The notes under the pieces: generated by a model
The model's input: only the letters and a program-made list of their open reading frames with translations
What the model was told of the DNA's origin: nothing
Database searches by the model: none
Position numbers and translations under genes: made by a program
Shown: piece by piece, positions 8,531 through 23,933 of the stretch
How the letters are laid out: each line of letters opens with the position of its first letter
Numbering within the stretch: position 1 is the first letter of the stretch
Source of the DNA: a bacterium
GTDB lineage: Bacteria > JAHJDO01
Length of the DNA stretch: 24,294 bases
Assembly: GCA_030611945.1 (NCBI GenBank)
Contig: JAUWOV010000016.1
Coordinates: 1 to 24,294 of the forward strand
Direction of reading: 5' to 3'

Positions 8531-8785
8531 TTATCTTTCTTCATCTTTTAAGGTAAGAACAAATTGGTAAACATCCTCAAGTGTCCGGATGTTTCTGATG
8601 CGTTGGTCAGCACGTATTTTAATGCCAAATTTCTGCTGCAAGGCAACAACCAGATCAACAACATCCAGACTGTCCAAGCCCAGATCTTCAAAAATATTCG
8701 CTTGCGGTAAGAGTTTTTCTTTTTTAATCTCAAAGGATTCCTCAAATACCTGATTTATTTTATCTATAATTTGCTGCTTATCCAT
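8531..8785 (-). CDS. Acyl carrier protein
   Basis: 84 residues, acidic and helical. The phosphopantetheine serine is S39 in EDLGLDSLDVVDLV, the signature of type II ACPs. It carries growing acyl chains as thioesters. The GGAGGG ribosome site lies inside the last codons of the upstream fic gene, and only one base separates the fic stop from this ATG, so the two are co-expressed. Its likely partners are the FabF-type ketosynthase and FabG upstream. Since no fabD, fabH or fabZ is nearby, this is probably a second, specialised ACP and not the main acpP; that is an inference from context. Confidence 0.92.
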   Translation of the reverse strand: MDKQQIIDKINQVFEESFEIKKEKLLPQANIFEDLGLDSLDVVDLVVALQQKFGIKIRADQRIRNIRTLEDVYQFVLTLKDEER

Positions 8786-8786
8786 T

Positions 8787-9857
8787 TTAAATCCCTCCTA
8801 TTTTTCTATAACTCGTGCTACGTCCCTGGCCAATACGTTCAACTTTTTTAAGTCGCAGCAGCTTATTGAGTGATTGTCTGACAGTTGGATGGGCAATTTT
8901 TGTTTTTTTAGCAATTTCAAGAGGAGTAGCTTCATCTACATTCTTAAGATACTGCCAAACTGTCTGTTGTTTTTTAGTGAGAAGTTTCTCTATGTTTTCC
9001 TTTGACAATAATTCTACTGCCATTTGTGATTGTTTCAAGAAAATAGTAAAAAAGAAATCAAGCCATGATGTAATATCTTCATGTTCAGTGTTAAGTGTTT
9101 TTTGACTTCTGCGGAGCGCAATATAATATTCCGGTTTGTTGTCCTCAACCAGCTTCTCATGAGAAATGTAAGACATATATAAATATCCCTCTTTTAGTAA
9201 AAGAAGGTTTGTGAGGACACGGGAAAGTCGACCATTACCATCTTGAAACGGATGAATCTTTAAAAATTCCACTAAGAAATTAGCAACAACAAGCGATGGA
9301 TGGAATTTCTTTTCTTCAAGCGCTTTTTGGGTCCATTCAACTAATTCCTGCATTTCTTTGGGAGCAAGAAAGGCGCATGTGGTATCAAAAAGAATATCGA
9401 TTGATTGGCCAGCTTTGTCTATCATATGCACTTTATTCTCCTGTTTCTTGTATTCACCTAGATGCCCTTGATCCTTCTCAACATGCTTAAGAAGTTCGCT
9501 ATGGAAATGTTTAATAGTGTTTTCATTAAACTGAAGCTTCTTCCACGAATTAAAAACATTCTCAAGTAATTCATAATATCCTCTAGCTTCCTGTTTGTCG
9601 CGATCAATAAACTTTTGAATAGAAATACCACGCATCATCTTCTCAATATCTTCATCCGAAAGCCTAGCGCCCTCAATACGAGTGGATGCGCCGGTAGAAG
9701 TAATCAAAACAGATCGTTTGAGACGACCTAAAACTTGAGAGCCTAATTGCGCTCCCCCAATCCATTGTCCCTGCAATTTATCGATTTGCGCTATCTTTGA
9801 CCAAATACTATCAGGAATATTCTGAAGCCGTTGGTCAAAAGGATTATTTTTTGTCAT
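8787..9857 (-). CDS. Fic-domain protein with C-terminal winged helix
   Basis: 356 residues from ATG 9857-9855; an in-frame TTG twelve bases upstream lies inside the repeat region. The layout has an N-terminal Fic-N-like helical part with the inhibitory motif STRIEG (58-63), the core HPFQDGNGRLSR with catalytic H202, and a C-terminal winged helix (about the last 65 residues: TPLEIAKKTKIAHPTVRQSL). Fic enzymes usually transfer AMP to Ser, Thr or Tyr of a target protein, and the N-terminal motif keeps them off. The DNA-binding tail and the repeats overlapping its promoter suggest self-regulation. It splits the ketosynthase from the ACP gene and is not part of ordinary fatty acid synthesis. The target is unknown. 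Confidence 0.92.
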   Translation of the reverse strand: MTKNNPFDQRLQNIPDSIWSKIAQIDKLQGQWIGGAQLGSQVLGRLKRSVLITSTGASTRIEGARLSDEDIEKMMRGISIQKFIDRDKQEARGYYELLENVFNSWKKLQFNENTIKHFHSELLKHVEKDQGHLGEYKKQENKVHMIDKAGQSIDILFDTTCAFLAPKEMQELVEWTQKALEEKKFHPSLVVANFLVEFLKIHPFQDGNGRLSRVLTNLLLLKEGYLYMSYISHEKLVEDNKPEYYIALRRSQKTLNTEHEDITSWLDFFFTIFLKQSQMAVELLSKENIEKLLTKKQQTVWQYLKNVDEATPLEIAKKTKIAHPTVRQSLNKLLRLKKVERIGQGRSTSYRKIGGI

Positions 9858-9861
9858 AAAT

Positions 9862-9900
9862 TTATCCAATATTTTATCTATATCGGATTATATCGGATTA
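9862..9900 (-). promoter_or_regulatory. Putative operator repeats at the fic promoter
   Basis: TATCGGATTA occurs twice in tandem at 9881-9890 and 9891-9900. An imperfect inverted copy (TTATCCAATA, 8 of 10 matching in the opposite orientation) is at 9862-9871. The tandem copies cover the -10 element of the fic promoter, so a protein bound here would block transcription. The winged helix of the Fic protein itself is the obvious candidate. Confidence 0.6.
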
Positions 9901-9915
9901 GCGAAATTAAGTCAA
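9887..9915 (-). promoter_or_regulatory. Promoter of fic-acp
   Basis: On the minus strand TTGACT (9915-9910) lies in the last codons of the ketosynthase gene. It is followed by a 17-base spacer and a perfect TATAAT (9892-9887). The transcript would start about 20 bases before the fic ATG and continue into the ACP gene. Confidence 0.7.
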
Positions 9916-11136
9916 ACTTTTGCACACCAGCGCTGCGTTAATCCCGCCGAACGCAAAGCAATTTTTCACCATAATTTTAATTTCTTTGTTTAATGGTTTC
10001 ATTACATGATAAATGCCTTCACAATCAGGGCTTACTTTCTCAAGATTTAGAGTAGGATATATGCACCCTTTTTTCATCATTGCCAAAGAAACAATTAGTT
10101 CCAATGCTCCTGATGCGCCGAGCGTATGTCCGATATATCCCTTCAAACTGCTTACTGGAACAAGATCTCCGAATATCTCCCCTATTGCCTGAGCTTCTTC
10201 CTTGTCACCTTGCGCCGTTGCTGTTGCGTGAGCATTGATATAATCAACATCCTTTGGTTCTATATGCGCATTGCTTAAGGCATTACTGATACACGAAACC
10301 ATACCAGCTCTGCTGGACTGGCTGATATGAGCTCCATTTCCGCATGTATGATATCCAATAATCTCAGCGTATATTTTCGCCTTCCTTGCTATGGCCCTTT
10401 CATACTCCTCCAGAACAAGTATCCCACTTCCTTCTCCACATACCAAACCGTCCCGTTTCACGTCAAAAGGCCGCGGGGTTTTATTAGGAGATTGATTATA
10501 ATTTGTTGATGTTGCAAAGAGAATATCAAAAGATCCGGTAACAGTTGGATGAGTTTCTTCTGCTCCGCCGCATAATACTGCATCTTGTTCGCCTAACCTG
10601 ATCAGATCGCAGCCTGCTCCAATAGCCTGCAATGCAGATGCGCACGCAGCAGAGGTTGCCATAACACAGCCTGTTATTCCCAGATACTGAGACACATTCA
10701 TCGCTGCTGTATGTGAAATACATTGAAAGAATTTTGTTGAATTAAGCTGGGTCAGATCTTTTTTGGGTATCATAATTTCAAAGGTTTCGCTAAGACTTTG
10801 AGCGCTTCCTGTAGTTGACCCAATAATACATCCAATCCTTCCTGTAGATAATCCTTCACGGTCTATATCAGCGTCTGAGATAGCTTGCTGCGCTGCCTGC
10901 GCTGCAAAAATACTCATTCTTCCCATTGACCGTCTGTTCTGACGCGGTATCAATTTTTCGTTTTTCATCTCCGCAGGCGCCGCAACTAAACTGCGCAGAC
11001 CGATGTACTGGTTCCAATCATCCATATAACGAACAGCGCTTTTCCTTTGTTCAATTCCCGCAGTAAGAGCAGGAACGTCATTGCCTAGAGGAGAAACAGC
11101 TCCGACACCAGTTATTACTACCCGTTTTAATTGCAT
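9907..11136 (-). CDS. fabF: FabF-type beta-ketoacyl-ACP synthase
   Basis: 409 residues, condensing enzyme of the KAS II class. It joins malonyl-ACP to an acyl chain with loss of CO2. The catalytic triad is complete: C165 in TSAACASALQ, H303 in NAHATATAQGD and H337 in KGYIGHTLGASG, with K332 in place. The N-terminal KRVVITGVGAVSPLG is typical. The start overlaps the upstream flavoprotein gene by ten bases. Whether it serves primary fatty acid synthesis or a specialised chain is open. The flavoprotein neighbour and the absence of other fab genes favour the latter, so the gene symbol denotes the family only. Confidence 0.92.
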   Translation of the reverse strand: MQLKRVVITGVGAVSPLGNDVPALTAGIEQRKSAVRYMDDWNQYIGLRSLVAAPAEMKNEKLIPRQNRRSMGRMSIFAAQAAQQAISDADIDREGLSTGRIGCIIGSTTGSAQSLSETFEIMIPKKDLTQLNSTKFFQCISHTAAMNVSQYLGITGCVMATSAACASALQAIGAGCDLIRLGEQDAVLCGGAEETHPTVTGSFDILFATSTNYNQSPNKTPRPFDVKRDGLVCGEGSGILVLEEYERAIARKAKIYAEIIGYHTCGNGAHISQSSRAGMVSCISNALSNAHIEPKDVDYINAHATATAQGDKEEAQAIGEIFGDLVPVSSLKGYIGHTLGASGALELIVSLAMMKKGCIYPTLNLEKVSPDCEGIYHVMKPLNKEIKIMVKNCFAFGGINAALVCKSLT

Positions 11137-12629
11137 AATCTCTGCTCAATAAAATGATTATATTTTTCTTTTCCAACAATAGTTCTTCCAACAATAAATG
11201 AAGACATCATTGCCCCTACCACTCCCGGTAGCATAGAACTCTGACCCGCAGCATATATATTACGAAGAGGAAGCTTTCCAAAAAGATTAAACTGTCCGAT
11301 TTTCTGTTTCACGCCGTATGCTGACCCGTCAGGAGAATTTAAATAATCTCTGAACGTCAGGATAGATGCAGAATCTATTACTTTAAAAGAATCCTTATAC
11401 TCCGGGAACTTTTCAATAATACGCTCTTTGATACTGCTGACATGCTGTTGTTTATATTTTCGGTAATCAGAAGGGCGACTCCCCGGCTTTGAAAACTTCC
11501 ATGCTTCCACATGCTCAGGGAAAGACACTTCAAGCGCGCTCAATACATGATAGAATTTCCCATTTACTTCTTCCGCATTCTGCATAATTACCAAGGCAGG
11601 CATCCCGCTATTTCCCGGATCAAGCAGCCGGTTTATATCCGCTGTTGGAAATAGAGAGGTGATTGTTGGAGTAAAGTCATCTGCTGAGTTAGGAGATTCC
11701 ACAACACCATACACTGAAAAGAACCCTGATGACGGTTCAAATGCTGACACCCGGTCAACAAAAGCCTTGCTCAAATGGTTATGAGGCAGGGTTCTTAATA
11801 TTTCCCCTGGATGTATTGTAAAGATACACTGGTCACAGGATATTTCTTCTCCTGTATTCAAAACAAAGCGTCCTACATAATTATTCTGTATATCAACACA
11901 CTCTGTAATATGCCTGTTGCACATGATTTCAATATCAAATTCTTTAAAATGCTTCTGAAATGCTCTGATAAACGCATCACCTCCGTCCTTTACTCTGGCA
12001 ACGGATTCATACAGGCTGTAACAGATTCTGCTGTGGTTAGCAAACGAAACCTCTCGAGGCTTAACTCCATAACACATGCTGTACCTAGCCAGCAGCGTCT
12101 TCAACTTAGAGTTGTCAGTCAATTGGTTTAGAACATCATCAAGAGTTAGAAAATCCTCATCTAAAGCGCTCACAGACATAGAAATTTTACGCAAATCCAT
12201 GGAAGCAGTTTGAGTACAGACATTTTTGGCCATAGCAAAATATTTGTCTACGGCATGTTCTTCGCATGGAAAGTATTCCTTTATCTTTTCTATTGTTCTC
12301 TGATAACCTGTCGGCAGATTATATGTTGTCTGTTCCGGGCCAAGTATAAACTGGTTGTTTTTCTCCTCTGACAGATAAATGGGCTGGATATGATCCTTAA
12401 TACCAAGAACCATCAGCATATCCTGAAGAATCCCGTTCTTATAGAATCCGCCTGTAAAGTGAAATCCAGTATCAAAAGGGATGCCTTGAGAATAAAATCG
12501 CCTCAATGATCCTCCGATATGCGCGTTTTTTTCAACAAGAAGCACTTTATGCCCATTCATGCCAAGTAAAAGCGCAAGTGTCAGACCGCTGACACCGCTT
12601 CCAACAATTATGTCATCATATTTTTTCAT
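11127..12629 (-). CDS. Phytoene desaturase-like FAD oxidoreductase
   Basis: 500 residues. The N-terminal FAD-binding motif is DDIIVGSGVSGLTLALLL (G10, G12, G15), followed by VEKNAHIGGSLRRF. The C-terminal part reads RNIYAAGQSSMLPGVVGAMMS, the FAD-contacting end of the CrtI / carotenoid isomerase / retinol saturase group. Such enzymes desaturate, saturate or isomerise polyene or acyl chains. No phytoene synthase or other carotenoid gene is present. The gene sits between fabG and fabF, with a ten-base overlap into fabF, so an ACP-bound or lipid-derived chain is the more likely substrate. That is inference. Similar flavoproteins beside FabF and ACP have been discussed in proposed ladderane lipid clusters of anammox bacteria. 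Confidence 0.85.
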   Translation of the reverse strand: MKKYDDIIVGSGVSGLTLALLLGMNGHKVLLVEKNAHIGGSLRRFYSQGIPFDTGFHFTGGFYKNGILQDMLMVLGIKDHIQPIYLSEEKNNQFILGPEQTTYNLPTGYQRTIEKIKEYFPCEEHAVDKYFAMAKNVCTQTASMDLRKISMSVSALDEDFLTLDDVLNQLTDNSKLKTLLARYSMCYGVKPREVSFANHSRICYSLYESVARVKDGGDAFIRAFQKHFKEFDIEIMCNRHITECVDIQNNYVGRFVLNTGEEISCDQCIFTIHPGEILRTLPHNHLSKAFVDRVSAFEPSSGFFSVYGVVESPNSADDFTPTITSLFPTADINRLLDPGNSGMPALVIMQNAEEVNGKFYHVLSALEVSFPEHVEAWKFSKPGSRPSDYRKYKQQHVSSIKERIIEKFPEYKDSFKVIDSASILTFRDYLNSPDGSAYGVKQKIGQFNLFGKLPLRNIYAAGQSSMLPGVVGAMMSSFIVGRTIVGKEKYNHFIEQRLCN

Positions 12630-12641
12630 ACAGAGACAACC

Positions 12642-13382
12642 TTAGAGAGCCAGACCGCCGTTAATACCAATGACCTGACCATGAATATACATATGCTTTT
12701 CTGTGCATAAAAAGTTCACTACCGATGCAACGTCATCAGGATTCCCAAATCTCTGCAATGGAATAAGCGGAAGAATTTTATCTTTCGGAAGATTTTCAAT
12801 CATATCTGTTTCAATCACGCCCGGAGCAACAACATTAACAAGAATATTCTTCTTGCCAACCTCCAGCGCTAACGCCTTAGCAGCGCCGATTAATCCTGCT
12901 TTTGAAGCAGAATAGTTTACCTGACCCGCGCGGCCAACCTGTCCGGAAGCTGAGGATACAACAACAATGCGTCCACGCTTCTCTCGCAGCATTGGGAATA
13001 AAGCGAAGTGCATTACGTTATAAAACCCATCCAGATTTGTGGAGAGAACGGCATCCCATTCTTCTTTAGTCATCCATACTAGAAGATTATCTCTGGTAAT
13101 GCCTGTGTTGTATACAACTATGTAGGGAGCGTGCTCATCTACCTTTTTCTCCAGAACAGCTTCAGTTTCCTGATAATTGGAAACATCGAAAGAGAGTGTA
13201 TCACATGCTCTTCCTATTTTCTCGACCTCTTCTTTTACCTTCTTAGCGGCAGCATGGTTGCTTTTATAGGTTAGCCATATATCAAACCCTGATCGAGCAA
13301 GACGCAAGGCTATTGCACGTCCTATACCCCGGCTTCCACCAATAATCAGAGCAGTTTTTGCGTTACTATTTTTCTTGTTCAT
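12642..13382 (-). CDS. fabG: FabG-type 3-oxoacyl-ACP reductase (SDR)
   Basis: 246 residues from ATG 13382; a GTG one codon upstream is also possible. It is a classical short-chain dehydrogenase. The cofactor loop GGSRGIG is at residues 15-21, the NAG-like turn reads YNTG, and the catalytic residues are S144, Y157 and K161 in SSASGQVG and YSASKAG. The arginine after GGS favours NADPH. It reduces the keto group left by the ketosynthase. The start lies within the end of the upstream 49-residue gene (17-base overlap), and the flavoprotein gene follows after 12 bases. The family is broad, so a sugar or other alcohol substrate cannot be excluded, but the neighbours favour acyl-ACP. Confidence 0.9.
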   Translation of the reverse strand: MNKKNSNAKTALIIGGSRGIGRAIALRLARSGFDIWLTYKSNHAAAKKVKEEVEKIGRACDTLSFDVSNYQETEAVLEKKVDEHAPYIVVYNTGITRDNLLVWMTKEEWDAVLSTNLDGFYNVMHFALFPMLREKRGRIVVVSSASGQVGRAGQVNYSASKAGLIGAAKALALEVGKKNILVNVVAPGVIETDMIENLPKDKILPLIPLQRFGNPDDVASVVNFLCTEKHMYIHGQVIGINGGLAL

Positions 13383-13515
13383 CACAAGATTGATTCGAAT
13401 TCTCTTCTGACTTTAAATTTTTTTTATCTAATTTGCGTTGTTTTTTTTCTTCCCGCTTTTTCTTTTTTGCTAAATCTTTCATACGTCTTGCATATTGATA
13501 ATTAGGTCTTGCCAT
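13366..13515 (-). CDS. Small lysine-rich protein, 49 residues
   Basis: This frame is too short for most gene finders. It starts at ATG 13515 directly after the stop of the aminotransferase gene and has a very strong ribosome site (GAGGAGG) four bases upstream. It ends at TAG 13368-13366. The protein begins MARPNYQYARRMKDLAKKKK and continues with alternating lysine and glutamate, then an acidic tail with one cysteine. It looks like a charged single helix. I believe similar short proteins beginning M(A/G)RPNY occur in other bacteria, but I cannot confirm that here. Function unknown; RNA or membrane-surface binding would fit the charge. The overlap with fabG suggests coupled translation. Confidence 0.75.
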   Translation of the reverse strand: MARPNYQYARRMKDLAKKKKREEKKQRKLDKKNLKSEENSNQSCDEQEK

Positions 13516-14760
13516 TTATCCTCCTCTTAGCTCTTCAGCATTCTCTTTGATTTTTTTAATTGCTCTTACAATATCATCCATATCTTTTTTAGTTCCAAGA
13601 AGCATCTCCTGTCTCAGCCACACAGCCTCTTTCTTGGAAATTCGTTCTGTAACCGAACAGGAAGTATTGGAGAAGTCTATTTCCTTTCCATAATATGGGC
13701 AGGATAATGGACAAAAGCCCGGTCCTTTCCCTTTTTTCTGAAACAGTGGATTTTCATATAATGGGAATGGGTAACCGGGTCTAGCCGGAATCCCTTCTGC
13801 TTCAAGAGCTTTTAGGAAGAATTCCCTTGGAATGCCGCAAAACTTGTTTTCAAGATACTTGAATATATAAATATGATAAGGTCTTTTTGTTACTCTCGGA
13901 TCTGTTTTTAAGGTTTTGATCCCGTCTATTTGCGAGAGCTTTTCATCTAAATATTCTGCATTTTTCCTGCGTTTGTCTTCAAGTCCTTCAAATCTATCTA
14001 ATTGGACAGTCAAGAGCGCTGCCTGAAACTCTGTCATACGGTAATTTCCTGCAAGAATATAGTGCTCATACCACCCTTTGCCCTTTCCTCTGCCGCAATT
14101 CGTGTATGAGCGGGCAGCTTCTGCAAGTTCAGAGTTGTTTGTTAAGAGTATTCCTCCTTCGCCTGCATTCAAGTTCTTGCTTGCCTGAAAACTAAACTCT
14201 CCAATATCTCCAATAGCGCCAACTCCTCTATTATGCCATCTGGCGCTCCATGCTTGCGCAGCATCCTCTATTACCTTTAAATTATGCTTAGATGCAATCT
14301 CCATGATCCTGTCCATATCAGCCGGATGACCTGCTATATGAACAGGCATAATTGCTTTTGTCTTTTTCGTAATTAGTTTCTCTATGCTCTCAGGATTGAT
14401 ACATAGAGTGTCTTCAGAGATATCGGCAAAAACAGGCACAGCGTTTGCTTTAAGAACAGAGCTGGCTGTTGCTATAAATGTATAAGCAGGAACAATAACC
14501 TCATCTCCAGCTCCAATCCCGCAAACAATGAGCGCAATTTCCAGACCAATTGTTCCGTTACATGTTGTTACGGCGTATTCTGCTCCCTGAAAATCGGCAA
14601 ATTTTTTCTCAAATTCAGCAATCTTTTCTCCATACCACCACTTGCCGCTGTCAATAACATCACAAACAGCTTTTTTTTCTTCTTCTCCAAAAACAGGCCA
14701 TGTGGAAAAAGATTTGGTTCTCGTTGGCAGATCACCGTTAATAGCAAGTTTAGTAGAGAT
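13516..14760 (-). CDS. DegT/DnrJ/EryC1 aminotransferase, non-standard start
   Basis: A PLP-dependent sugar-type aminotransferase. The cofactor lysine is K195 in FSFQASKNLNAGEGG, and HIAGHPADMDRI and EDAAQAW are typical of the family. The first ordinary start codon is a GTG at 14439, but that would give 307 residues and cut off a clearly homologous N-terminal part. The frame continues upstream for 107 codons and reads KLAINGDLPTRTK, then WPVFGEEEKKAV, the normal beginning of this family. This stretch has no ATG, GTG or TTG. An ATC at 14760 lies nine bases after GGAGG inside the end of the aldolase gene, and an ATT at 14742 is another option. I place the start at the ATC, giving 414 residues; a one-base assembly error is the alternative. 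The substrate is unknown. Confidence 0.8.
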   Translation of the reverse strand: MSTKLAINGDLPTRTKSFSTWPVFGEEEKKAVCDVIDSGKWWYGEKIAEFEKKFADFQGAEYAVTTCNGTIGLEIALIVCGIGAGDEVIVPAYTFIATASSVLKANAVPVFADISEDTLCINPESIEKLITKKTKAIMPVHIAGHPADMDRIMEIASKHNLKVIEDAAQAWSARWHNRGVGAIGDIGEFSFQASKNLNAGEGGILLTNNSELAEAARSYTNCGRGKGKGWYEHYILAGNYRMTEFQAALLTVQLDRFEGLEDKRRKNAEYLDEKLSQIDGIKTLKTDPRVTKRPYHIYIFKYLENKFCGIPREFFLKALEAEGIPARPGYPFPLYENPLFQKKGKGPGFCPLSCPYYGKEIDFSNTSCSVTERISKKEAVWLRQEMLLGTKKDMDDIVRAIKKIKENAEELRGG

Positions 14761-15828: not shown

Positions 15829-16848
15829 TCACTGCTCTTCTCTGATTGGCATTGGAGAATGTCCATGGTTTTGCGCGATTTTTCTACCAATTTTCTTCAC
15901 TCTGTTTTCCATACAGTATCTGCAGGTTATAGGATCTTCCCCTATGCACGGTTTATCAGGATAGAGCCTGTAATTTTGCTTGTATCTATCGGGTGTAATA
16001 TTAGGCATCACCACATTAGCCCCGGACTGCAGTATTATCTCTCTGGCATTGGAGCGCAATACATCCATAGCTGTAGTAGCCGGCAGGAGAACCTTCGGAC
16101 AGAGGATTCTAATCAATGCAATAAATTTTTGCACAATTGCAAAATCTCCGTTTTTATTGTTGGCAAGAGGTGTGTCATTATTAGAAATATATGGTCCTGC
16201 TCCTACCATATGAAAATTCCATTTTTTTATGAACAGAATATCTTCCGCTATATCCTCTATTATTTGTCCTGGCAAACCTATCATAGAACCGCTGCCAACT
16301 TGATATCTAAGCTCAAACAGCCATTGGAGACATTGTAATCTTTCATGATAGTCATCATCCGGATGCAGCTTTTTAAACAGGTTTTCATTGCTCGTCTCAA
16401 ATCTTAATAGATATCTGTCTGCGCCGGCATTTTTGAATGCCTTATACTCATCAAAACTTCTCTCCCCAATACTTAGGGTTACAGCCAGATCAGTATGCGT
16501 TTTAATGTCTTCTATTAATTTTGTTAATATCTTTTTTGTAAACCACATATCCTCGCCTGACTGAAGAACGATTGTTTTAAGACCGTGTTTATCTATCAGA
16601 ACAGCTGTTTGGAGAATTTCTTCAGGAGACATCCTGTAACGAGTAATATTTTTATTTGATTTGCGAAGACCGCAGTAAAGACAATCTTTTCTACAAAAGT
16701 TTGAAAATTCACATATGCCTCTTAGATGAACCTCATTACCGACATTTTCTTTTCTTATATAATCAGCTTGTTTAACAATATCAGAGTAATCGTCTCTCTT
16801 TAATATCTCAACTATGTCATGCTTAGAAATATATATCTCTTTCCCCAT
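15829..16848 (-). CDS. hydE: [FeFe]-hydrogenase maturase HydE (radical SAM)
   Basis: 339 residues from ATG 16848; a TTG two codons upstream is possible. HydE is a radical SAM enzyme that helps build the dithiolate-bridged diiron part of the H-cluster. The cluster motif CRKDCLYC holds C52, C56 and C59. The second, non-essential cluster site C-x7-C-x2-C is present at C301, C309 and C312 (CIGEDPITCRYC), as in the Thermotoga type. GSGSMIGLPGQ is a typical core segment. The start lies within the last codons of hydG. Position after hydF and hydG confirms the assignment over biotin synthase relatives. No hydrogenase gene lies in the window. Confidence 0.95.
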   Translation of the reverse strand: MGKEIYISKHDIVEILKRDDYSDIVKQADYIRKENVGNEVHLRGICEFSNFCRKDCLYCGLRKSNKNITRYRMSPEEILQTAVLIDKHGLKTIVLQSGEDMWFTKKILTKLIEDIKTHTDLAVTLSIGERSFDEYKAFKNAGADRYLLRFETSNENLFKKLHPDDDYHERLQCLQWLFELRYQVGSGSMIGLPGQIIEDIAEDILFIKKWNFHMVGAGPYISNNDTPLANNKNGDFAIVQKFIALIRILCPKVLLPATTAMDVLRSNAREIILQSGANVVMPNITPDRYKQNYRLYPDKPCIGEDPITCRYCMENRVKKIGRKIAQNHGHSPMPIREEQ

Positions 16849-18319
16849 TCTCAACTCTTTTGTAGTATTTCATAAGTTTTGCATAAAATTCAGGCATGAG
16901 CTTTTTAACTTCTTCAATTTCCTTGTTTATAATTTTTTCTCCTGCAATCTTTGTTTCTTTACTGCCAAAATCATCTAGCCACTCTCTGAAAGTAAGAATC
17001 GCGTTCAATTTGCAGAACTGTCCTTCCTTACCTGTTTTTAAAAGGTTCATAATGCACTTGCCTGTTCTGCCGCAGCGATATCCTGCAGTGCAAAACGAAG
17101 TAATATATCCCATTTCCGCAAATTCTCTTATTACCTCATCAAGACTGCGTGTATCTCCCAATAAGAATTGCTGACGTTCCTTTTCCTGCTCGGTATATCT
17201 GTCACTGTAAGCCCCAATCCCTATGCGTGTCGATGCATCCGTTTGCGTACACCCCAACGAAAAAGTCTCTCTTCGCATTTGAGCGCTCTCTCTTGCAGTA
17301 ATAATCATCCCTGTATACGGCACTGATAAACGTATCACTGTTACCAGCTTCTTGAAATCGTCATCGCTTACTTTATACTTTGGATCCTGTGTAATCGGAG
17401 AATTTGACGCAGGTTCAAGACGCGGAAAGGAAATAGTATGAGGCCCTATGCCAAATTTTTCCTCTAATTCCCTTGCATGGTATAAAAGTCCCATAACCTC
17501 AAATTTCCAGTCATACAAGCCGAATAAAGCGCCTATTCCAACATCGTCAATCCCTGCTTCCATTGACCTGTGCATGCAGTACAATCTCCATCTATAATCT
17601 GATTTTATCGTGCCTTTTGGATGAACTTCTTGATAGGTTTTATGATGATAGGTTTCCTGAAATACCTGAAACGTTCCTATTCCAACTTCCTTTAGTTTCT
17701 TCAAATCCTCTATTGACAACGGAGCAGCGTTCACATTAACTCTGCGGATGCTTCCCGATCCATTTTTCGTCTTGACCCTAACATCATATATCTGCTTTAT
17801 ACTGGAAGTCATATAATCTATATCAGTAGTCGGATGTTCGCCATAAACAACTATTAATCTCTTGTGCCCGATTTTACCTGCCAAAACCTCTGTTTCTTTC
17901 TTTACTTCTTCCAATGTAAGCACTCTTCTTTTCTCATCCTTGTTTTCTTTTCTGAATCCACAATATAAACAGCTATTCACACACAAGTTTGCCAGATAAA
18001 GAGGAGCAAAGGTTACAATCCTGTTGTCATAGACCTTTTTCTTGATTTTAGAAGCTGTGCTTGCCATTTCCTCCAGCATGTTTTTATCAGTTACATTGAG
18101 TAAAGTGGCCGTTTCGTCAGGACTTAGTGTTTCAACAGCCACTGATTTGTCAAGAATATCCCTTATCTCTTTTGAATCGACACGTTTATTATTTTCTAAT
18201 TTTTTTGTAATCTCTTTATCATTTATAAAATCTCCGTCTCCATCCATATATTTTGTAATCTGATCTCTATTAATCCTGTTTGCTATCCATGATTTTTTAT
18301 CAATTATTTCTGTGCACAT
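16823..18319 (-). CDS. hydG: [FeFe]-hydrogenase maturase HydG (radical SAM), atypical auxiliary site
   Basis: 498 residues. HydG cleaves tyrosine to make the CO and cyanide ligands of the H-cluster iron. The radical SAM motif CVNSCLYC has C113, C117 and C120. The C-terminal auxiliary cluster normally uses C-x2-C-x22-C. Here C410 and C436 sit exactly 26 apart as expected, but the middle position 413 is glycine (SFCTAGYRCGRTGKC). Extra cysteines occur at 416 and 422. So the auxiliary cluster may use a different ligand or be altered. The rest of the domain (GRTG, LNAILTFREWLDDF) is normal. The start overlaps hydF by 16 bases and the end overlaps hydE by 26. Confidence 0.93.
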   Translation of the reverse strand: MCTEIIDKKSWIANRINRDQITKYMDGDGDFINDKEITKKLENNKRVDSKEIRDILDKSVAVETLSPDETATLLNVTDKNMLEEMASTASKIKKKVYDNRIVTFAPLYLANLCVNSCLYCGFRKENKDEKRRVLTLEEVKKETEVLAGKIGHKRLIVVYGEHPTTDIDYMTSSIKQIYDVRVKTKNGSGSIRRVNVNAAPLSIEDLKKLKEVGIGTFQVFQETYHHKTYQEVHPKGTIKSDYRWRLYCMHRSMEAGIDDVGIGALFGLYDWKFEVMGLLYHARELEEKFGIGPHTISFPRLEPASNSPITQDPKYKVSDDDFKKLVTVIRLSVPYTGMIITARESAQMRRETFSLGCTQTDASTRIGIGAYSDRYTEQEKERQQFLLGDTRSLDEVIREFAEMGYITSFCTAGYRCGRTGKCIMNLLKTGKEGQFCKLNAILTFREWLDDFGSKETKIAGEKIINKEIEEVKKLMPEFYAKLMKYYKRVENGERDIYF

Positions 18320-19566
18320 TCTTTAGCTCCTTTAGCTTTTCTAAACACATCCAGAGCGGCAGGAAATGGAGAAAGCACTCTTTCCAATACTCCATGCAGG
18401 AAAGAAATACACACGCCGTAATTTGTTATAGGAACGTCTTCCTGTTTAGCTCGCTGAATTCTAAACAGCATTTCTCTTCTGTTGATCATACATCCTCCGC
18501 AATGAATAACCAGTTTATAGTCCTTTAAGTTTTCAGGATAATCATGCCCCGAATATACATCTATGTTCAGCTTTACACCTGTATATCCTTTTAGCCATCG
18601 CGGGATCTTTACTCTTCCGATATCATCTTCAACAGGATGATGTGTGCATGCTTCCCCAATAAGAATTTTGTCTCCGGAAACCAGTTTGTCTATTTCGCAT
18701 ACACCTCTTACTGCTTCAATCAAGTCCCCTTTGTATCTGGCAAAAAGAATAGAAAACGTTGTACATTTAACGTCTTTTGGAGTATCAGCTACCATCTTTG
18801 ATACAACCTGAGAATCACATACTGAAATGTCAGGCGGCTTCTTTAGGTTGTCCAGTATATGAGCATACTCACTCTCCTTAACAATCAATGCGGCAGAGTC
18901 ATTATCTAACGCATCTCGTATTGTCTGGACCTGAGGAAGAATAATTCTTCCTTTAGGAGCTTCCAAATCAATAGGAACAATAAGCACTGCCAGTCCTTTT
19001 GAAGGAATAAGATCCCCTATAATAGGAGGAGGATTCAAAAAATCATCAGGGCATATCTCAATAAGATGCTTTTTTAAGTCATTTACATATACATCTCTAT
19101 TATTAAAATCCGTGCTGGCGCAAAGAATAATCCGCTCTGTCTTAACTTTTAGTTTTTTTGCAAACTCAAGGGAAGGCGATTTTTGATCAATCTTATTCAA
19201 AACGATAATGAAAGGCGTATTTCTTTTTTTCGCTTCACGTAAAATAGTATCTTCGTATTTTCCCAATATATCTGCTTCAACCAGAAGCAAAATAATATCC
19301 GCTCTGTCAAATATATTCTTTGTTTTTTTGATTCTCAATTCTGAAATGGATGAGATGTCATCTATCCCTGCAGTATCAAGAAACACAACAGGTCCAAGCG
19401 GCAAGAACTCCATAACCTTTTCAACAACATCTGTAGTTGTGCCAGGAATAGGAGAAGTTATTGCCACATCCTGATTAGCAATAAGATTCAAAAAACTGGA
19501 TTTGCCAACATTGGTTCTTCCAAATAATCCTATGTGAAGCCGTAATGATTTAGGCGCTTTTTTCAT
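18304..19566 (-). CDS. hydF: [FeFe]-hydrogenase maturation GTPase HydF
   Basis: 420 residues. HydF is the scaffold that receives the diiron precursor and hands it to the hydrogenase. The N-terminal GTPase has the P-loop GRTNVGKS (16-23), the switch PGTTTD, DTAG near 60 and NKID near 124. The C-terminal cluster-binding domain shows ACTHHPVEDDIGR and HCGGCMINR, giving the expected CxH...HCxxC ligand set. A GAGG ribosome site lies five bases before the ATG. It is the first gene of hydF-G-E. In the 100-base gap upstream I see no convincing promoter, so transcription may continue from the rnf operon. Confidence 0.95.
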   Translation of the reverse strand: MKKAPKSLRLHIGLFGRTNVGKSSFLNLIANQDVAITSPIPGTTTDVVEKVMEFLPLGPVVFLDTAGIDDISSISELRIKKTKNIFDRADIILLLVEADILGKYEDTILREAKKRNTPFIIVLNKIDQKSPSLEFAKKLKVKTERIILCASTDFNNRDVYVNDLKKHLIEICPDDFLNPPPIIGDLIPSKGLAVLIVPIDLEAPKGRIILPQVQTIRDALDNDSAALIVKESEYAHILDNLKKPPDISVCDSQVVSKMVADTPKDVKCTTFSILFARYKGDLIEAVRGVCEIDKLVSGDKILIGEACTHHPVEDDIGRVKIPRWLKGYTGVKLNIDVYSGHDYPENLKDYKLVIHCGGCMINRREMLFRIQRAKQEDVPITNYGVCISFLHGVLERVLSPFPAALDVFRKAKGAKECAQK

Positions 19567-19666: not shown

Positions 19667-19951
19667 TTATTCGTTGCCAAGCATTTTTGAGATTTGATCT
19701 ATTTGTTTTTGCTTTTTCTTTATAAGCAGGCATGCAGATGCTTTTGCTTTTCCCTCAACAATTGCCCGCGCAAGTTCCATACAGCTTGTAAATCCACACG
19801 CGCTGCAGTTTGCCCCAGGAAGAGCTTTGAAAACCTCTTCTATTTTGGGATCAATCTTTACAGCGAACTTTTTTGATGCATAGCCAAGTACAAGTCCAAA
19901 GATAAATCCAAGTCCCCCAAGAAGCAGAGTTGCTGTTAAAATGATTTTCAT
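19667..19951 (-). CDS. rnfB: Short RnfB-like subunit without ferredoxin domain
   Basis: 94 residues from ATG 19951, whose ATG overlaps the rnfA stop (ATGA); longer readings run into rnfA. It has one N-terminal membrane helix (about 4-24) and then the RnfB cluster motif at C49, C52, C57 and C74 (ALPGANCSACGFTSC). It ends in a lysine-rich helix. Ordinary RnfB continues with one or more ferredoxin-like domains carrying at least two [4Fe-4S] clusters, giving 180 residues or more. Here the gene simply stops, and the 100 bases downstream hold no remnant. Electron entry from ferredoxin would need another protein. Membrane bound, part of Rnf. Confidence 0.88.
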   Translation of the reverse strand: MKIILTATLLLGGLGFIFGLVLGYASKKFAVKIDPKIEEVFKALPGANCSACGFTSCMELARAIVEGKAKASACLLIKKKQKQIDQISKMLGNE

Positions 19952-20535
19952 ATTAAACAGGTAAATCCCATAAAAGCAAGCGACATTAAACCTGCTATGA
20001 TGAACGCAATTGGTACGCCTTTCATACACTCAGGCGCGCCGTCGGTTAGATCCAGCCTTTCCCTTATTGCAGACATAAGAAGCAGCGCAATAGTAAAACC
20101 CACACCGGCGCCCAGACCATTCACAACGCTTTCTATAAAACCAAGATTAGAATCACTGTTAATTGTTACCAGTCCGAGAACAGCGCAGTTTGTAGTAATA
20201 AGCGGAAGAAAAATTCCCAATGCTTGTTGAAGAGCGGGACTTATTTTAGTAATGACCATTTCTACAAACTGAACCAATGTTGCAATCACGAGAATAAATG
20301 TAATTGTTCGTAAAAACATTACATCGAACGGGATCAATAAGTAATGCTGTATAACCCATGCAGTCATTGACGCAATGGTCATAACAAATATTACAGCCAT
20401 TCCCATACCAAAGGCAGCAGAGCTATTTTTGGAAACGCCTATGAATGGGCATATGCCAAGAAATCTATTTAATACATAGTTATTTACCAGAGCTGCGGAA
20501 AGGAATATTATGAATAATTTAGTAAAAAACACCAT
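19948..20535 (-). CDS. rnfA: Rnf complex membrane subunit RnfA
   Basis: 195 residues with six predicted membrane helices. Conserved loops are NYVLNRFLGICPFIGVS near residue 20 and LPLITTNCAVLG near 110; both cysteine-containing half-repeats are typical of RnfA/NqrE and form a membrane cluster site with RnfE. The start abuts the rnfE stop with no gap. It works with RnfE as the ion and electron path across the membrane. Confidence 0.95.
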   Translation of the reverse strand: MVFFTKLFIIFLSAALVNNYVLNRFLGICPFIGVSKNSSAAFGMGMAVIFVMTIASMTAWVIQHYLLIPFDVMFLRTITFILVIATLVQFVEMVITKISPALQQALGIFLPLITTNCAVLGLVTINSDSNLGFIESVVNGLGAGVGFTIALLLMSAIRERLDLTDGAPECMKGVPIAFIIAGLMSLAFMGFTCLI

Positions 20536-21132
20536 TTATGCTTTTCCTTTTTTCGACAAACTATTAAATAAACCAAGAAACAAGCCAAGAGCTATGAATG
20601 CTCCAGGTGGTAAAATCATTATTATCACAGGGTTAAAATTAGTTCCCAATATATGATATCCCCAGATTGTTCCGACTCCAAGTATTTCTCTTACAGCTCC
20701 AAGAAGCGCAAGCGCGCCTGTAAATCCTATTCCCATGCCTAATGCGTCCAAAACAGAAGGGAAAACAGGATTTTTGGATGCAAAAGCCTCTGCTCTGCCA
20801 AGTATAATACAGTTTACAACGATCAATGGAATAAATATTCCAAGAGATTTATTTAATGCAGGAAAATATGCCTGCATTATAAGCTCCACTATAGTTACAA
20901 AAGTGGCAATGATCACAATAAAAGCGGGAATGCGAATATTTGATGGTATAAGTTTTCTGAATAAAGAAACAAGTATATTGGACCCTAAAAGCACAAAGGT
21001 AGTAGCTGCTCCCATGCCTATAGCATTTACCAATGAGGTTGAAACAGCAAGTGTCGGACACATACCCAGAATAAGGCGAAATGTGGGATTCTCCGCAAAA
21101 ATGCCTCTTGAGAAATCTTGTTTAAGGCTCAT
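20536..21132 (-). CDS. rnfE: Rnf complex membrane subunit RnfE
   Basis: 198 residues, six membrane helices, homologous to RnfA. The conserved segments are NPTFRLILGMCPTLAVS near residue 16 and FIPLIVVNCIILGRAEAFA near 105. The ATG overlaps the rnfG stop (ATGA). The RAEAFAS segment and the longer C-terminus separate it from RnfA. Confidence 0.95.
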   Translation of the reverse strand: MSLKQDFSRGIFAENPTFRLILGMCPTLAVSTSLVNAIGMGAATTFVLLGSNILVSLFRKLIPSNIRIPAFIVIIATFVTIVELIMQAYFPALNKSLGIFIPLIVVNCIILGRAEAFASKNPVFPSVLDALGMGIGFTGALALLGAVREILGVGTIWGYHILGTNFNPVIIMILPPGAFIALGLFLGLFNSLSKKGKA

Positions 21133-21674
21133 TCTTGTTTTCTCTCAATCTTTAAAAATTCCGCTATAGATTTTTGCACAGCTTTACTAACAGCGCGCGA
21201 TGATATAGTCGCTCCGGTAATAGCGTCAATAGTACCATTGTCGGAGTCTTTTTTTAAAAAAACTTGTTTCAAAGTTTTGTTCATAAACTGATCTGTGAAC
21301 TTCGTTCCTTCTACTCTTGTTCCAAGACCCGGAGTTTCACCCTGCTTGATGATCTTAATATCTTTTATTGTTTTATCCGGATTTAGCCCTATCTTAATTT
21401 TAATTGTGCTGCCAAATCCTTTTCCAGACGCATCTAGCGCATATCCTATTAACTTATTCTTTATATAAACCTCATAATAAATATAGTTGCCTTTACGGGT
21501 AATTAGCTTAAAACTTGTTGCTTTTGGGAAAATTTCCTTTAGCGCTTTTTCTTCTTCCAGTTTAACTTGTTTTGCAATCGGTTCCTTTGTAACAGTATAG
21601 GTTATCCCAAGAATTGCGCCTGAAATAGCGGCAATTATAAACAGAACCATCGCCAATTTTAATATGTTACGCAT
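21129..21674 (-). CDS. rnfG: Rnf complex flavoprotein RnfG
   Basis: 181 residues. A single N-terminal membrane helix (about 7-29) anchors an extracytoplasmic FMN-binding domain. The flavin is attached covalently to a threonine, here T156 in the motif TGATISS, by a flavin transferase (ApbE) that is not in the window. GETPGLGTRV is the typical loop before it. Overlaps rnfD by eight bases. It takes part in the electron path between RnfD and the other membrane subunits. Confidence 0.95.
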   Translation of the reverse strand: MRNILKLAMVLFIIAAISGAILGITYTVTKEPIAKQVKLEEEKALKEIFPKATSFKLITRKGNYIYYEVYIKNKLIGYALDASGKGFGSTIKIKIGLNPDKTIKDIKIIKQGETPGLGTRVEGTKFTDQFMNKTLKQVFLKKDSDNGTIDAITGATISSRAVSKAVQKSIAEFLKIERKQE

Positions 21675-22623
21675 TTATTTCTCCGAATTTTCTAGGTATT
21701 GTCCACTTCCATCTATCTATCAACGGACTTACGGCATTCATTAATAGTATGGAGTATGCTACTCCTTCAGGATATCCGCCTTTCAACCTTATCAGAACTA
21801 CTATTATTCCAGCTCCTAATCCAAATATAATTTTTCCTCTTGGTGTTATAGGCGTTGTTACATAATCTGTTGCCATGAAGAAAGCGCCAAGGATTAATCC
21901 TCCGCTCAGTATGCTGAACAATGCGTCTCCCGTAAATAAGCCGTTCTTACCGAATATCCAGGAAAGCAATGCTACGCACCCAATGTATGAAAGGGGAGTA
22001 TGCCAAGAAATTCGCTTTCTTATGAATAAATATGCTGCGCCGAGTAGCAACGCAAGAGCGGATGTTTCTCCAATACATCCTCCTATGTTCCCAATAAACA
22101 GGTTCCAGTGGGAAGGAAGCCCTTGAGCCAGATTGAGTTTTACTATTGCTAATGGGGTTGCGCAGGTTTCAGCATCAATCCTTCTGAATAAGCCTGATTG
22201 CGGCGCGAGCCATGTGGTCATAAAAGTAGGCCATGAAGCCATAAGTATTGCTCTGCCTATAAGAGCCGGGTTGAATATATTGCGTCCAAGACCGCCGAAT
22301 ACTTCTTTCCCAAGTATAATAGCGCACGCAGCTCCAACCGCAGGCAGCCATAAAAGCACTCCCGGCGGTATTATCATGCCTAACAAAAGACCTGTCACAA
22401 TAGCGCTGCCATTTGATATAGTTTTGCGTCCTCTTATTTTGGATATAACTGCCTCGGTTATTATGGCTGTGAAGATGCTTATTATAACCGGATACAACGC
22501 TTGCGCGCCAAAAAAATAAATTCCAATACCAAGCGCAGGCGCAAGAGCTATTATAACATCCCACATTGTCTTTCTAATAGATAAATCGGAATGGATACGA
22601 GGAGACGTTGAAATAGTATACAT
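21667..22623 (-). CDS. rnfD: Rnf complex membrane flavoprotein RnfD
   Basis: 318 residues from ATG 22623, which overlaps the rnfC stop (TAATG). The open frame extends 31 codons further upstream, but those lie inside rnfC. Many membrane helices, as in RnfD/NqrB. Typical segments are SPRIHSDLSIRKTMWDV at the start, GKEVFGGLGRNIFNPA near 105-120, and TDYVTTPITPRG near the end. The flavin attachment site, usually [S/T]GAT, reads TCAT here (T153-T156), with cysteine for glycine. The acceptor threonine T156 is kept. Confidence 0.94.
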   Translation of the reverse strand: MYTISTSPRIHSDLSIRKTMWDVIIALAPALGIGIYFFGAQALYPVIISIFTAIITEAVISKIRGRKTISNGSAIVTGLLLGMIIPPGVLLWLPAVGAACAIILGKEVFGGLGRNIFNPALIGRAILMASWPTFMTTWLAPQSGLFRRIDAETCATPLAIVKLNLAQGLPSHWNLFIGNIGGCIGETSALALLLGAAYLFIRKRISWHTPLSYIGCVALLSWIFGKNGLFTGDALFSILSGGLILGAFFMATDYVTTPITPRGKIIFGLGAGIIVVLIRLKGGYPEGVAYSILLMNAVSPLIDRWKWTIPRKFGEINA

Positions 22624-23933
22624 TATTTTTTTAACCGTGTTTTCCCATATTTTATATACTTGACTATCGGTATATTCGCAGGACATACATATGCGCAGGC
22701 ACCGCATTCCATACAATCCAATAATCCGTATTCTTTTGCGTCCTCAAATCGCTCATTTTTTATAGAGTTGGTTATTACATTAGGTAATATTTTCATAGGG
22801 CAGACACTAGCGCAGTTGCCGCATCTTATACAACATTCTTCAGGCTTATCGCAAACCTCGTTCTTTGTTTGCACAAGTATTCCCGATGTGCCTTTAATTA
22901 CCGGAACATCCGCTGTATATTGTGCGATCCCCATCATTGGGCCACCCATTATTATTTTCCCTGCTTCTTCTTTGGCTCCTCCACATGCCTCTATTAAATT
23001 TGAGAATGGAGTTCCTATTCTTACTCTAAGATTTTGCGGATTCCTGACGCCTTTTCCAGTTACAGTTACAATCCGCTCTACCAGAGGTTTTCTTTCTACA
23101 ACAGATTCATATACTGCAAACGATGTGCCGACATTACTAACTATTGCTCCAACATCCATTGGAAGTTCGCCGCTTGGCACTTCACGTTTCAGGAGAGCTT
23201 TTATAAGCTGTTTTTCAGCTCCCTGAGGATATTTTACCTTAAGTGATATCACATCAATATTAAGATCAGGTTCTTTATTAATTTCATCCGCAATTTTTCT
23301 AAACGCATCGGGCTTATTACGTTCAATGCCAATTATGCCTTTCTTTACGCCAGTTGCTTTCATTAAAATTTTGAGTCCTATGACAACTTGTTCTGCATAT
23401 TCCAGCATTAGCCTGTGATCAGCTGTTAGAAATGGTTCACATTCAGCGCCATTTAAAATGTATGTATCAATTTTTTTATTTTCCGGCGGGCTGAGTTTTA
23501 CATGTGTTGGAAACGCAGCGCCGCCAAGTCCAACAACACCTGCTTCCCGTACAATATGTTTTATCTCTTCCTGCTTGAGCGTTTTCCAGTCTCTTTTTGT
23601 TTCTTCAATAGCCCATGTATCAGCCTCATCAGATTCTATGATAATAGATAGAGCTTTAGTTTCTAAAGGATGCAGCATAGGGGAGATATCTATCACTTTA
23701 CCTGATATTGTTGCATGGACAGGAGCGGATACAAATGTCTTCGTATCACCTATCTTCTGTCCTACCTTAACAATATCTCCGATCTTAACCAGCGGCTCAC
23801 ATACTGCGCCTGTATGCTGCTGCAGGGGAATGATTGCTTTTTTAGGAGGACGAAGATTCAAAATTTTCTTTGCACTTGTGCCGGTTTTAGAATCCTCCGG
23901 ATGAATTCCTCCATAAAAGCTAAAATTTATCAT
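22623..23933 (-). CDS. rnfC: Rnf complex NADH-binding subunit RnfC
   Basis: 436 residues, peripheral, cytoplasmic face. The Rnf-Nqr N-terminal barrel carries HPEDSK and PLQQHTGAVCEPLV. The NADH/FMN domain shows GLGGAAFPTHVKL, LNGAECEPFLTADHR and later MGGPMMG. Two [4Fe-4S] motifs follow at 368-379 (CIRCGNCASVCP) and 407-418 (CMECGACAYVCP). The C-terminus is short after the second cluster, as in compact RnfC forms. It is the first gene of the operon, with a weak GGGGA ribosome site about seven bases before the ATG, a leader of about 175 bases and a promoter at 24114-24142. Confidence 0.96.
   Translation of the reverse strand: MINFSFYGGIHPEDSKTGTSAKKILNLRPPKKAIIPLQQHTGAVCEPLVKIGDIVKVGQKIGDTKTFVSAPVHATISGKVIDISPMLHPLETKALSIIIESDEADTWAIEETKRDWKTLKQEEIKHIVREAGVVGLGGAAFPTHVKLSPPENKKIDTYILNGAECEPFLTADHRLMLEYAEQVVIGLKILMKATGVKKGIIGIERNKPDAFRKIADEINKEPDLNIDVISLKVKYPQGAEKQLIKALLKREVPSGELPMDVGAIVSNVGTSFAVYESVVERKPLVERIVTVTGKGVRNPQNLRVRIGTPFSNLIEACGGAKEEAGKIIMGGPMMGIAQYTADVPVIKGTSGILVQTKNEVCDKPEECCIRCGNCASVCPMKILPNVITNSIKNERFEDAKEYGLLDCMECGACAYVCPANIPIVKYIKYGKTRLKK

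What the first reader, a model, noticed from the sequence alone, without database searches (positions are those of the whole stretch)
9907..13382. Small ACP-dependent assembly set with a phytoene-desaturase-like enzyme
FabG, a CrtI/retinol-saturase-like flavoprotein and a FabF-type ketosynthase are packed with small gaps or overlaps, and an ACP follows after the fic gene. No fabD, fabH, fabZ, fabI, phytoene synthase or other carotenoid gene is present, so this is neither a primary fatty acid operon nor a carotenoid operon. A flavoprotein of this class working on an ACP-bound chain could desaturate, isomerise or saturate a polyene. Proposed ladderane gene sets of anammox bacteria combine FabF, ACP and such flavoproteins, which is the closest parallel I know. 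The product here is unknown.
Basis: partly seen in the sequence, partly recalled or inferred. Interest (0 to 1): 0.62.

Follow-up and report, generated by a model that had tools for sequence, protein, structure and literature searches.

The report
Aryl-polyene-type cluster with radical enzymes
These four genes are one piece of a conserved set of about 20 genes, shared by oxygen-avoiding bacteria of at least eight phyla, that looks built to make and export a pigment-like polyene lipid and add radical chemistry to it, and that is related both to known flexirubin pigment genes and to the genes suspected of making ladderane lipids in anammox bacteria.

Summary
In detail: fabG, a CrtI-fold flavoprotein (PD), a ketosynthase (KS1) and an ACP lie on the minus strand; fic is a species-specific insert.

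They are a fragment of a larger conserved cluster: FabG-PD-KS1-ACP-PlsC-FlxY-type ligase-radical SAM/SPASM-LolA-MMPL-DUF3261-ApeI-type dehydratase-KS2-small protein-two B12 radical SAM enzymes-DUF2062/LpxL. It is contiguous in two congeners and a distant genome, but split over separate contigs here. At least eight phyla carry it.

KS1 matches aryl-polyene ApeR, FabG ApeQ, and most other genes have ape or flx counterparts. PD groups with PDs of flexirubin-type clusters (support 100/100), apart from CrtI/CrtD. The genome has no phytoene synthase.

The anammox cluster proposed for ladderanes is homologous through its FlxY-type ligase, SPASM enzyme, TIGR04072 enzyme, FabG, KSs and MMPL, but its PD is not an ortholog (AU p=0.005). 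Here the SPASM enzyme is fused to an ApeP-like dehydratase half.

Best reading: an anaerobic variant of the aryl-polyene/flexirubin pathway making an envelope polyene lipid tailored by PD and radical SAM enzymes. Product and PD's reaction are unknown. Similar clusters were already reported as "ladderane-like"; the APE/flexirubin reading and the fusion were not found in the papers searched.

The parts
12642..13382 (-). FabG-type SDR ketoreductase, counterpart of ApeQ/FlxB
   Evidence: NCBIfam PRK05653.1-5 303 bits over cut-off, FlxB 292 bits below its cut-off of 340; cluster FabG profile hits E. coli ApeQ with 249 bits
11127..12629 (-). CrtI-fold FAD flavoprotein (PD), tailoring redox enzyme or isomerase; flexirubin-cluster homologs sit where flxV would be
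   Evidence: tree with other cluster PDs 100/100; AlphaFold pLDDT 93.1, best PDB match 4REP carotenoid desaturase Z 33.4
9907..11136 (-). ApeR-type ketosynthase KS1 with intact Cys-His-His
   Evidence: E. coli ApeR 43% identity and 430 bits to the family profile; top PDB chains are the ApeR proteins 7f27 and 4ewg; active site; aromatic pocket F119/F136/F203
8531..8785 (-). acyl carrier protein with DSL motif, counterpart of ApeF
   Evidence: PRK05350 72.6 bits over cut-off; ApeF 63 bits to the family profile; directly follows KS1 in other genomes

Best explanation
The block is the front end of an aryl-polyene/flexirubin-type type II PKS cluster in a variant shared by anaerobic lineages. Inferred pathway: a FlxY-type ligase activates an aromatic or similar acid. 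KS1 (ApeR-type) and a KS/CLF pair on contig C19 elongate it on the ACP with malonyl units. FabG reduces each keto group. A two-part dehydratase, an ApeI-type protein plus an ApeP-type domain fused to a radical SAM/SPASM enzyme, makes the double bonds. PlsC and LpxL acyltransferases and a DUF2062 glycosyltransferase anchor the chain to a lipid, and MMPL, LolA and DUF3261 proteins move it to the outer membrane. PD, a carotenoid-desaturase fold, acts on the polyene chain; isomerisation, desaturation or saturation of ACP- or lipid-bound polyene is my best guess, with isomerisation slightly ahead because aryl polyenes reach full conjugation without PD. Two B12 radical SAM enzymes add C-methyl groups or close rings. 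Shown by sequence: gene content, conserved order, family placements, active-site motifs, the fusion. Inferred: starter unit, product, every catalytic step, PD's reaction.
For: Complete contiguous cluster in L053, G002 and G004, and scattered but retained in the window's genome. Conserved FabG-PD-KS1-ACP-PlsC-ligase-SPASM order in many named genomes. Cluster profiles hit E. coli ApeR, Q, F, D, I, J, M, L and P. FlxY-type ligase 469-471 bits against about 190-200 for PaaK. ApeP fusion: hhalign E 8e-13, PDB 6qsr_B E 7e-9 by sequence and E 1e-11 by fold, 24 fused ORFs; the separate dehydratase's best PDB hit is 6qsr_A, the partner chain, and the His and Glu motifs are split between the two. PD tree and ligase tree show the same groups. 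FlxY biochemistry PMC3992019; ape functions PMC8253772; ApeR pocket PMC8358021.
Against: PD has no counterpart in the E. coli ape cluster, so aryl polyenes can be made without it and its step is unassigned. No tyrosine ammonia-lyase in this genome, its congeners or G268, so an aromatic starter is not shown. The ligase falls below the curated FlxY cut-off. No ApeH, ApeK or ApeB counterpart was found by the cluster profiles. Anammox bacteria have a related cluster, and aryl polyenes are not known from them to my knowledge. In this species the cluster is split over contigs of a 91% complete MAG.
Confidence: 0.7

Rival explanations
1. A ladderane-like pathway: KS, ACP and FabG make a polyunsaturated acyl-ACP, PD desaturates it, and radical SAM enzymes cyclise it into strained rings, as proposed for anammox bacteria.
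For: The B12 radical SAM enzyme on C14 is a member of TIGR04072 rSAM_ladder_B12 (646 bits, cut-off 360). The anammox candidate cluster shares the FlxY-type ligase, SPASM, TIGR04072, FabG, KS and MMPL genes. Rattray 2009 (PMC2649909) and the Cariaco study (PMC9902471) report ladderane-like clusters in non-anammox bacteria.
Against: The anammox PD is not an ortholog. The anammox methyltransferases and the degenerate KS of that cluster were not seen in the window-type clusters. Desulfotalea psychrophila, with a similar cluster, gave no ladderanes (PMC2649909). Anammox ladderane genes are themselves unproven (PMC4790861). Ape/flx-type export genes point to the envelope.
Confidence: 0.12
2. A carotenoid or retinoid-type PD that happens to sit beside fab genes.
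For: CrtI-superfamily domains and carotenoid-desaturase fold.
Against: All carotenoid NCBIfam scores far below cut-offs; outside CrtI and CrtD; no phytoene synthase in four genomes; PD-KS1 overlap conserved across phyla.
Confidence: 0.02
3. A non-aromatic polyene or anaerobic polyunsaturated fatty acid/hydrocarbon system, with the FlxY-type ligase loading an aliphatic acid.
For: No TAL in these genomes; D. psychrophila, which has a similar cluster, makes C31:8 and C31:9 hydrocarbons (PMC2649909).
Against: KS1 keeps the aromatic pocket residues of ApeR, and C. pinensis FlxY prefers 4-coumarate (PMC3992019).
Confidence: 0.16

Closest known systems
Flexirubin clusters (flx) of Bacteroidota
   Same: Homologous PD (probably FlxV by gene order), FlxY-type ligase, MMPL, PlsC, LolA, ApeI-type dehydratase, DUF2062 glycosyltransferase, FabG and KS genes
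   Different: No B12 radical SAM or SPASM enzymes found in the flexirubin loci profiled; dialkylresorcinol and TAL genes not part of the window-type cluster; PD only about 26% identical
Aryl polyene (ape) cluster of E. coli CFT073
   Same: Profile matches for ApeR, Q, F, D, I, J, L, M and P
   Different: No PD and no radical SAM genes; unrelated ligase (ApeH); ApeP stand-alone, not fused to a radical SAM enzyme
Anammox kuste3335-3352-type cluster proposed for ladderanes
   Same: FlxY-type ligase, SPASM and TIGR04072 enzymes next to one another, plus FabG, KS, MMPL and glycosyltransferase
   Different: PD from another branch; SPASM enzyme not fused; stand-alone FabZ-like dehydratase with both motifs; extra methyltransferases and a degenerate KS
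Geobacter, Desulfotalea and Pelobacter 'ladderane-like' FASII clusters (Rattray 2009)
   Same: Geobacteraceae loci here carry the order FabG-KS-PD-KS-ACP-PlsC-ligase-SPASM-LolA-MMPL
   Different: An extra KS between FabG and PD; PD about 30-33% identical; ApeP-like domain stand-alone in several

Membership tests
Aryl polyene / flexirubin-type cluster | ApeR-type and KS/CLF ketosynthases | tested here: met
   KS1 43% to ApeR; on C19 an active-site-intact KS that is ApeO's best hit in this genome and a partner KS lacking Cys/His
Aryl polyene / flexirubin-type cluster | ApeQ-type reductase and ApeI:ApeP two-part dehydratase | tested here: met
   the ApeP half is fused to a radical SAM enzyme
Aryl polyene / flexirubin-type cluster | Aryl-acid activating ligase | tested here: inconclusive
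   FlxY-like, 469-471 bits against a cut-off of 520; substrate not testable
Aryl polyene / flexirubin-type cluster | LolA, MMPL, DUF3261 and acyl/glycosyltransferase anchoring and export genes | tested here: met
Aryl polyene / flexirubin-type cluster | Aromatic starter supply (TAL or chorismate lyase) | tested here: inconclusive
   No TAL/HAL in G000, G002, G004, G268; chorismate lyase not searched
Aryl polyene / flexirubin-type cluster | Aryl polyene product | not testable with these tools
   Needs extracts
Ladderane (anammox) cluster | TIGR04072 B12 radical SAM enzyme in the same gene set | tested here: met
   646 bits, cut-off 360, on contig C14
Ladderane (anammox) cluster | Orthologous phytoene-desaturase-like enzyme | tested here: not met
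   Tree and AU test p=0.005; only the PD of this one anammox cluster type was tested, not kuste3607
Ladderane (anammox) cluster | Ladderane lipids | not testable with these tools
   Needs lipidomics
Carotenoid CrtI/CrtD | Score over family cut-off, grouping with CrtI/CrtD, phytoene synthase in genome | tested here: not met
Primary FAS operon | fabD/fabH/acpP/fabF set | tested here: not met
   No other fab gene in the window; a separate fabG-acp-fabF on contig C2

The most novel reading that the evidence does not exclude
The radical SAM/SPASM-ApeP fusion puts a radical step inside the elongation cycle of an aryl-polyene-type synthase, and together with PD and two B12 radical SAM enzymes turns the nascent polyene into a cyclised or branched envelope lipid. 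The anammox ladderane candidate cluster would then be one diverged branch of this radical polyene family.
Probability: 0.15. Interest if true: 0.88.

Novelty: new variant of a known kind. Interest (0 to 1): 0.62.

Why it matters
It places the genes suspected of making ladderanes in anammox bacteria inside the same wider family as flexirubin and aryl-polyene pigment clusters, with a concrete intermediate type found in several phyla. It separates which anammox genes are shared with pigment-type clusters (FlxY-type ligase, SPASM, TIGR04072, FabG, KS, MMPL) from those that are not (its PD, its methyltransferases). It also gives a testable target: one carrier, Victivallis vadensis DSM 14823, is a named culture-collection strain, so the product can be looked for. 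The fused radical SAM-dehydratase is a direct clue to how radical chemistry meets polyene assembly.

Tried and rejected
Viral contigs scan with PD found nothing. Plasmid hits with PD besides Persicobacter and Aureispira (Variovorax, Photobacterium, Pseudanabaena) belong to other CrtI-like branches; the Variovorax neighbourhood has no KS. The fic gene as part of the set was rejected. The C-terminal extension of the SPASM enzyme was first taken as unknown, then shown to be ApeP-like. The small protein next to KS2 gave only weak KS-like hits and no ApeC match; left unassigned. A plasmid record could not serve as a taxonomic centre; anammox genomes were reached through a planctomycete handle and confirmed by hydrazine synthase. 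Reads that could test the contig structure of the window's MAG were not available. Text searches for a published aryl-polyene reading of these clusters found none in the library, which lacks most subscription journals.
Full report
What is there. On the minus strand of the window lie fabG (12642-13382), a 500-residue CrtI-fold flavoprotein here called PD (11127-12629), a ketosynthase KS1 (9907-11136), a fic gene (8787-9869) and an ACP (8531-8785). PD and KS1 overlap by 10 bases, and a short overlap recurs in most relatives. Upstream lie a DegT-type aminotransferase gene and fba; downstream lie an isochorismatase-like gene and genes that look like an arginine operon. The left flank is shared with two congeners, the right flank is not.

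It is a fragment. In two species of the same genus (G002, G004) the block continues with PlsC, a phenylacetate-CoA-ligase-like protein, a radical SAM/SPASM protein, LolA, MMPL, a DUF3261-type lipoprotein, a FabA/ApeI-type dehydratase, KS2, a small protein, two B12 radical SAM proteins and a DUF2062 protein. In genome G268 the whole series from the end of fabG to LpxL is contiguous. In the window's own genome the pieces are on different contigs: C113 (window), C4 with PlsC-ligase-SPASM, and C14 with LolA through PagL. A KS/CLF-like pair on C19 has homologs next to the same cluster genes in G038 and in Lentisphaerota. The pieces lie inside their contigs, so the split looks real, but assembly error cannot be excluded. 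All pieces being kept suggests they still work together. The fic gene is absent at this place in G004 and replaced by another ORF in G002.

Distribution. A pattern scan with a PD alignment found the same block in MAGs or isolates of Thermodesulfobacteriota, Nitrospirota, Omnitrophota, Hydrogenedentota, Kiritimatiellota, Lentisphaerota and Verrucomicrobiota, besides the window's own lineage, which shares no phylum with any other genome sampled. Labels 'Deltaproteobacteria bacterium' map to Myxococcota in the taxonomy dump and were not counted. Thirty-three of 40 close PD loci have a KS within 8 kb, against none of 22 distant CrtI-like loci; anammox PDs are in a KS cluster but a little farther away.

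Relation to aryl polyenes and flexirubins. Profiles built from the conserved cluster were run on the E. coli CFT073 ape genes: KS1 hits ApeR (430 bits), FabG hits ApeQ (249), MMPL ApeM (121), DUF2062 and LpxL ApeJ (102 and 47), ACP ApeF (63), PlsC ApeD (41), LolA ApeL (32), dehydratase ApeI (28). KS1's two best PDB chains, 7f27 and 4ewg, are ApeR proteins (PMC8358021). The aromatic pocket residues named for ApeR, Phe118, Tyr135 and Phe202, are aromatic in all 33 KS1 sequences (119, 136, 203), while the genome's primary FabF has His and Ile at the first two. KS1 and KS2 keep Cys-His-His. The ligase scores 469-471 bits to the flexirubin ligase FlxY, below that family's cut-off of 520, but only about 190-200 to PaaK. 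FlxY of Chitinophaga pinensis activates 4-coumarate (PMC3992019). In Flavobacterium-type loci the PD homolog sits between the MMPL gene and an acyltransferase- or peptidase-like gene followed by FlxY; by position it is probably FlxV, listed in that paper only as a possible reductase. That equation is my inference.

The fusion. The SPASM protein of window-type clusters has a conserved C-terminal extension of about 145 residues. It matches ApeP by hhalign (probability 97.8, E 8e-13), by phmmer to PDB 6qsr_B (E 7e-9) and by fold (6qsr_B rank 10, E 1e-11, TM 0.80 on the target; model pLDDT 84.7). Twenty-four ORFs carry the fusion, a few of them overlapping copies of the same gene; anammox and Desulfobulbaceae homologs lack it, and several Geobacter-type clusters have a separate ApeP-like protein. 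The separate dehydratase's best PDB hit is 6qsr_A, the partner chain of the ApeI:P heterocomplex. The dehydratase keeps the GHFP motif but lacks the Glu, while the fused domain keeps the Glu/Gln motif and lacks GHFP. So an ApeI:ApeP-type two-part dehydratase appears to be physically joined to a radical SAM enzyme.

PD. Trees of 109 and 57 proteins place the window PD in a clade with PDs of window-type, Geobacter-type, Lentisphaerota and flexirubin-type clusters (100/100). CrtI and CrtD of Roseobacteraceae and the anammox PDs fall outside. Holding the anammox PDs with that clade is rejected (AU p=0.005). The predicted structure (pLDDT 93.1) matches a carotenoid desaturase best (4REP, Z 33.4, rmsd 3.2 over 445 residues). 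No phytoene synthase was found in four genomes. The fold allows desaturation, isomerisation or saturation; nothing here decides among them.

Ladderanes. Hydrazine-synthase-positive genomes include G471, a 4,406,153-base single contig; I take it to be Kuenenia-like from its size and gene order. Its candidate ladderane cluster (L227) contains a FlxY-type ligase (422 bits FlxY against 206 PaaK), a SPASM enzyme 45% identical, a TIGR04072 enzyme (440 bits, cut-off 360), FabG, KSs, an MMPL protein and a glycosyltransferase. The genes ligase-SPASM-TIGR04072 are directly adjacent there. The ligase tree puts the anammox ligases on a long separate branch. Rattray 2009 (PMC2649909) noted the Geobacter and Desulfotalea similarity; Javidpour 2016 (PMC4790861) found that the anammox PDs do not make lycopene and did not obtain ladderanes; the Cariaco study (PMC9902471) reported antiSMASH ladderane clusters in Omnitrophota and others without known product. 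So the existence of such clusters is known; their reading as a radical variant of the aryl-polyene/flexirubin family, and the fusion, were not found in the papers searched.

Mechanism proposed. Ligase-activated acid, elongation by KS/CLF and KS1 on ACP, reduction by FabG, dehydration by the split dehydratase, PD and radical SAM tailoring, then anchoring and export to the outer membrane. Shown: homology, order, motifs, fusion. Inferred: all reactions and the product.

Verdict. The ladderane link is real at cluster level but not for the flavoprotein. I rate this a new variant of a known kind with interest 0.62.

Noticed in passing
window 8787-9869: A fic gene is inserted between KS1 and ACP in this species only; a congener has a different ORF at the same place and another has none, so the spot seems prone to insertions.
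   Followed up: partly
window 13366-13515, minus strand: A short lysine-rich ORF (about 50 aa, starting MARPNYQYARRMKDLAKKKK) lies between the DegT-type gene and fabG.
   Followed up: no
window 14437-14760, minus strand: The DegT-type reading frame stays open upstream of its first listed start (GTG 14439), into sequence that reads like the normal N-terminus, so it may use an unusual start codon or overlap fba.
   Followed up: no
L183 17465-19051 (G002): A second, distant CrtI-like protein (528 aa) lies just past the cluster in one congener.
   Followed up: no
L015 (G000 contig C19) 12111-19775: A further KS/CLF/ACP set with a condensation-domain-like protein, an FAD protein and an AMP ligase; homologs of its KS pair adjoin the same cluster genes in other genomes.
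   Followed up: partly
L067 and L049 (G097, G364): Small genomes (1.3-1.4 Mb) with two adjacent CrtI-like genes; in G097 these lie among several B12 radical SAM genes, LolA- and LpxL-like genes, without a KS nearby.
   Followed up: no
L149: A contig binned as Bifidobacterium breve carries a Flavobacterium-type flexirubin cluster and is probably misbinned.
   Followed up: no
window 15829-19566: Three genes that look like HydE, HydG and HydF ([FeFe] hydrogenase maturation) lie next to an Rnf-like operon (19667-23933), fitting an anaerobic host.
   Followed up: no
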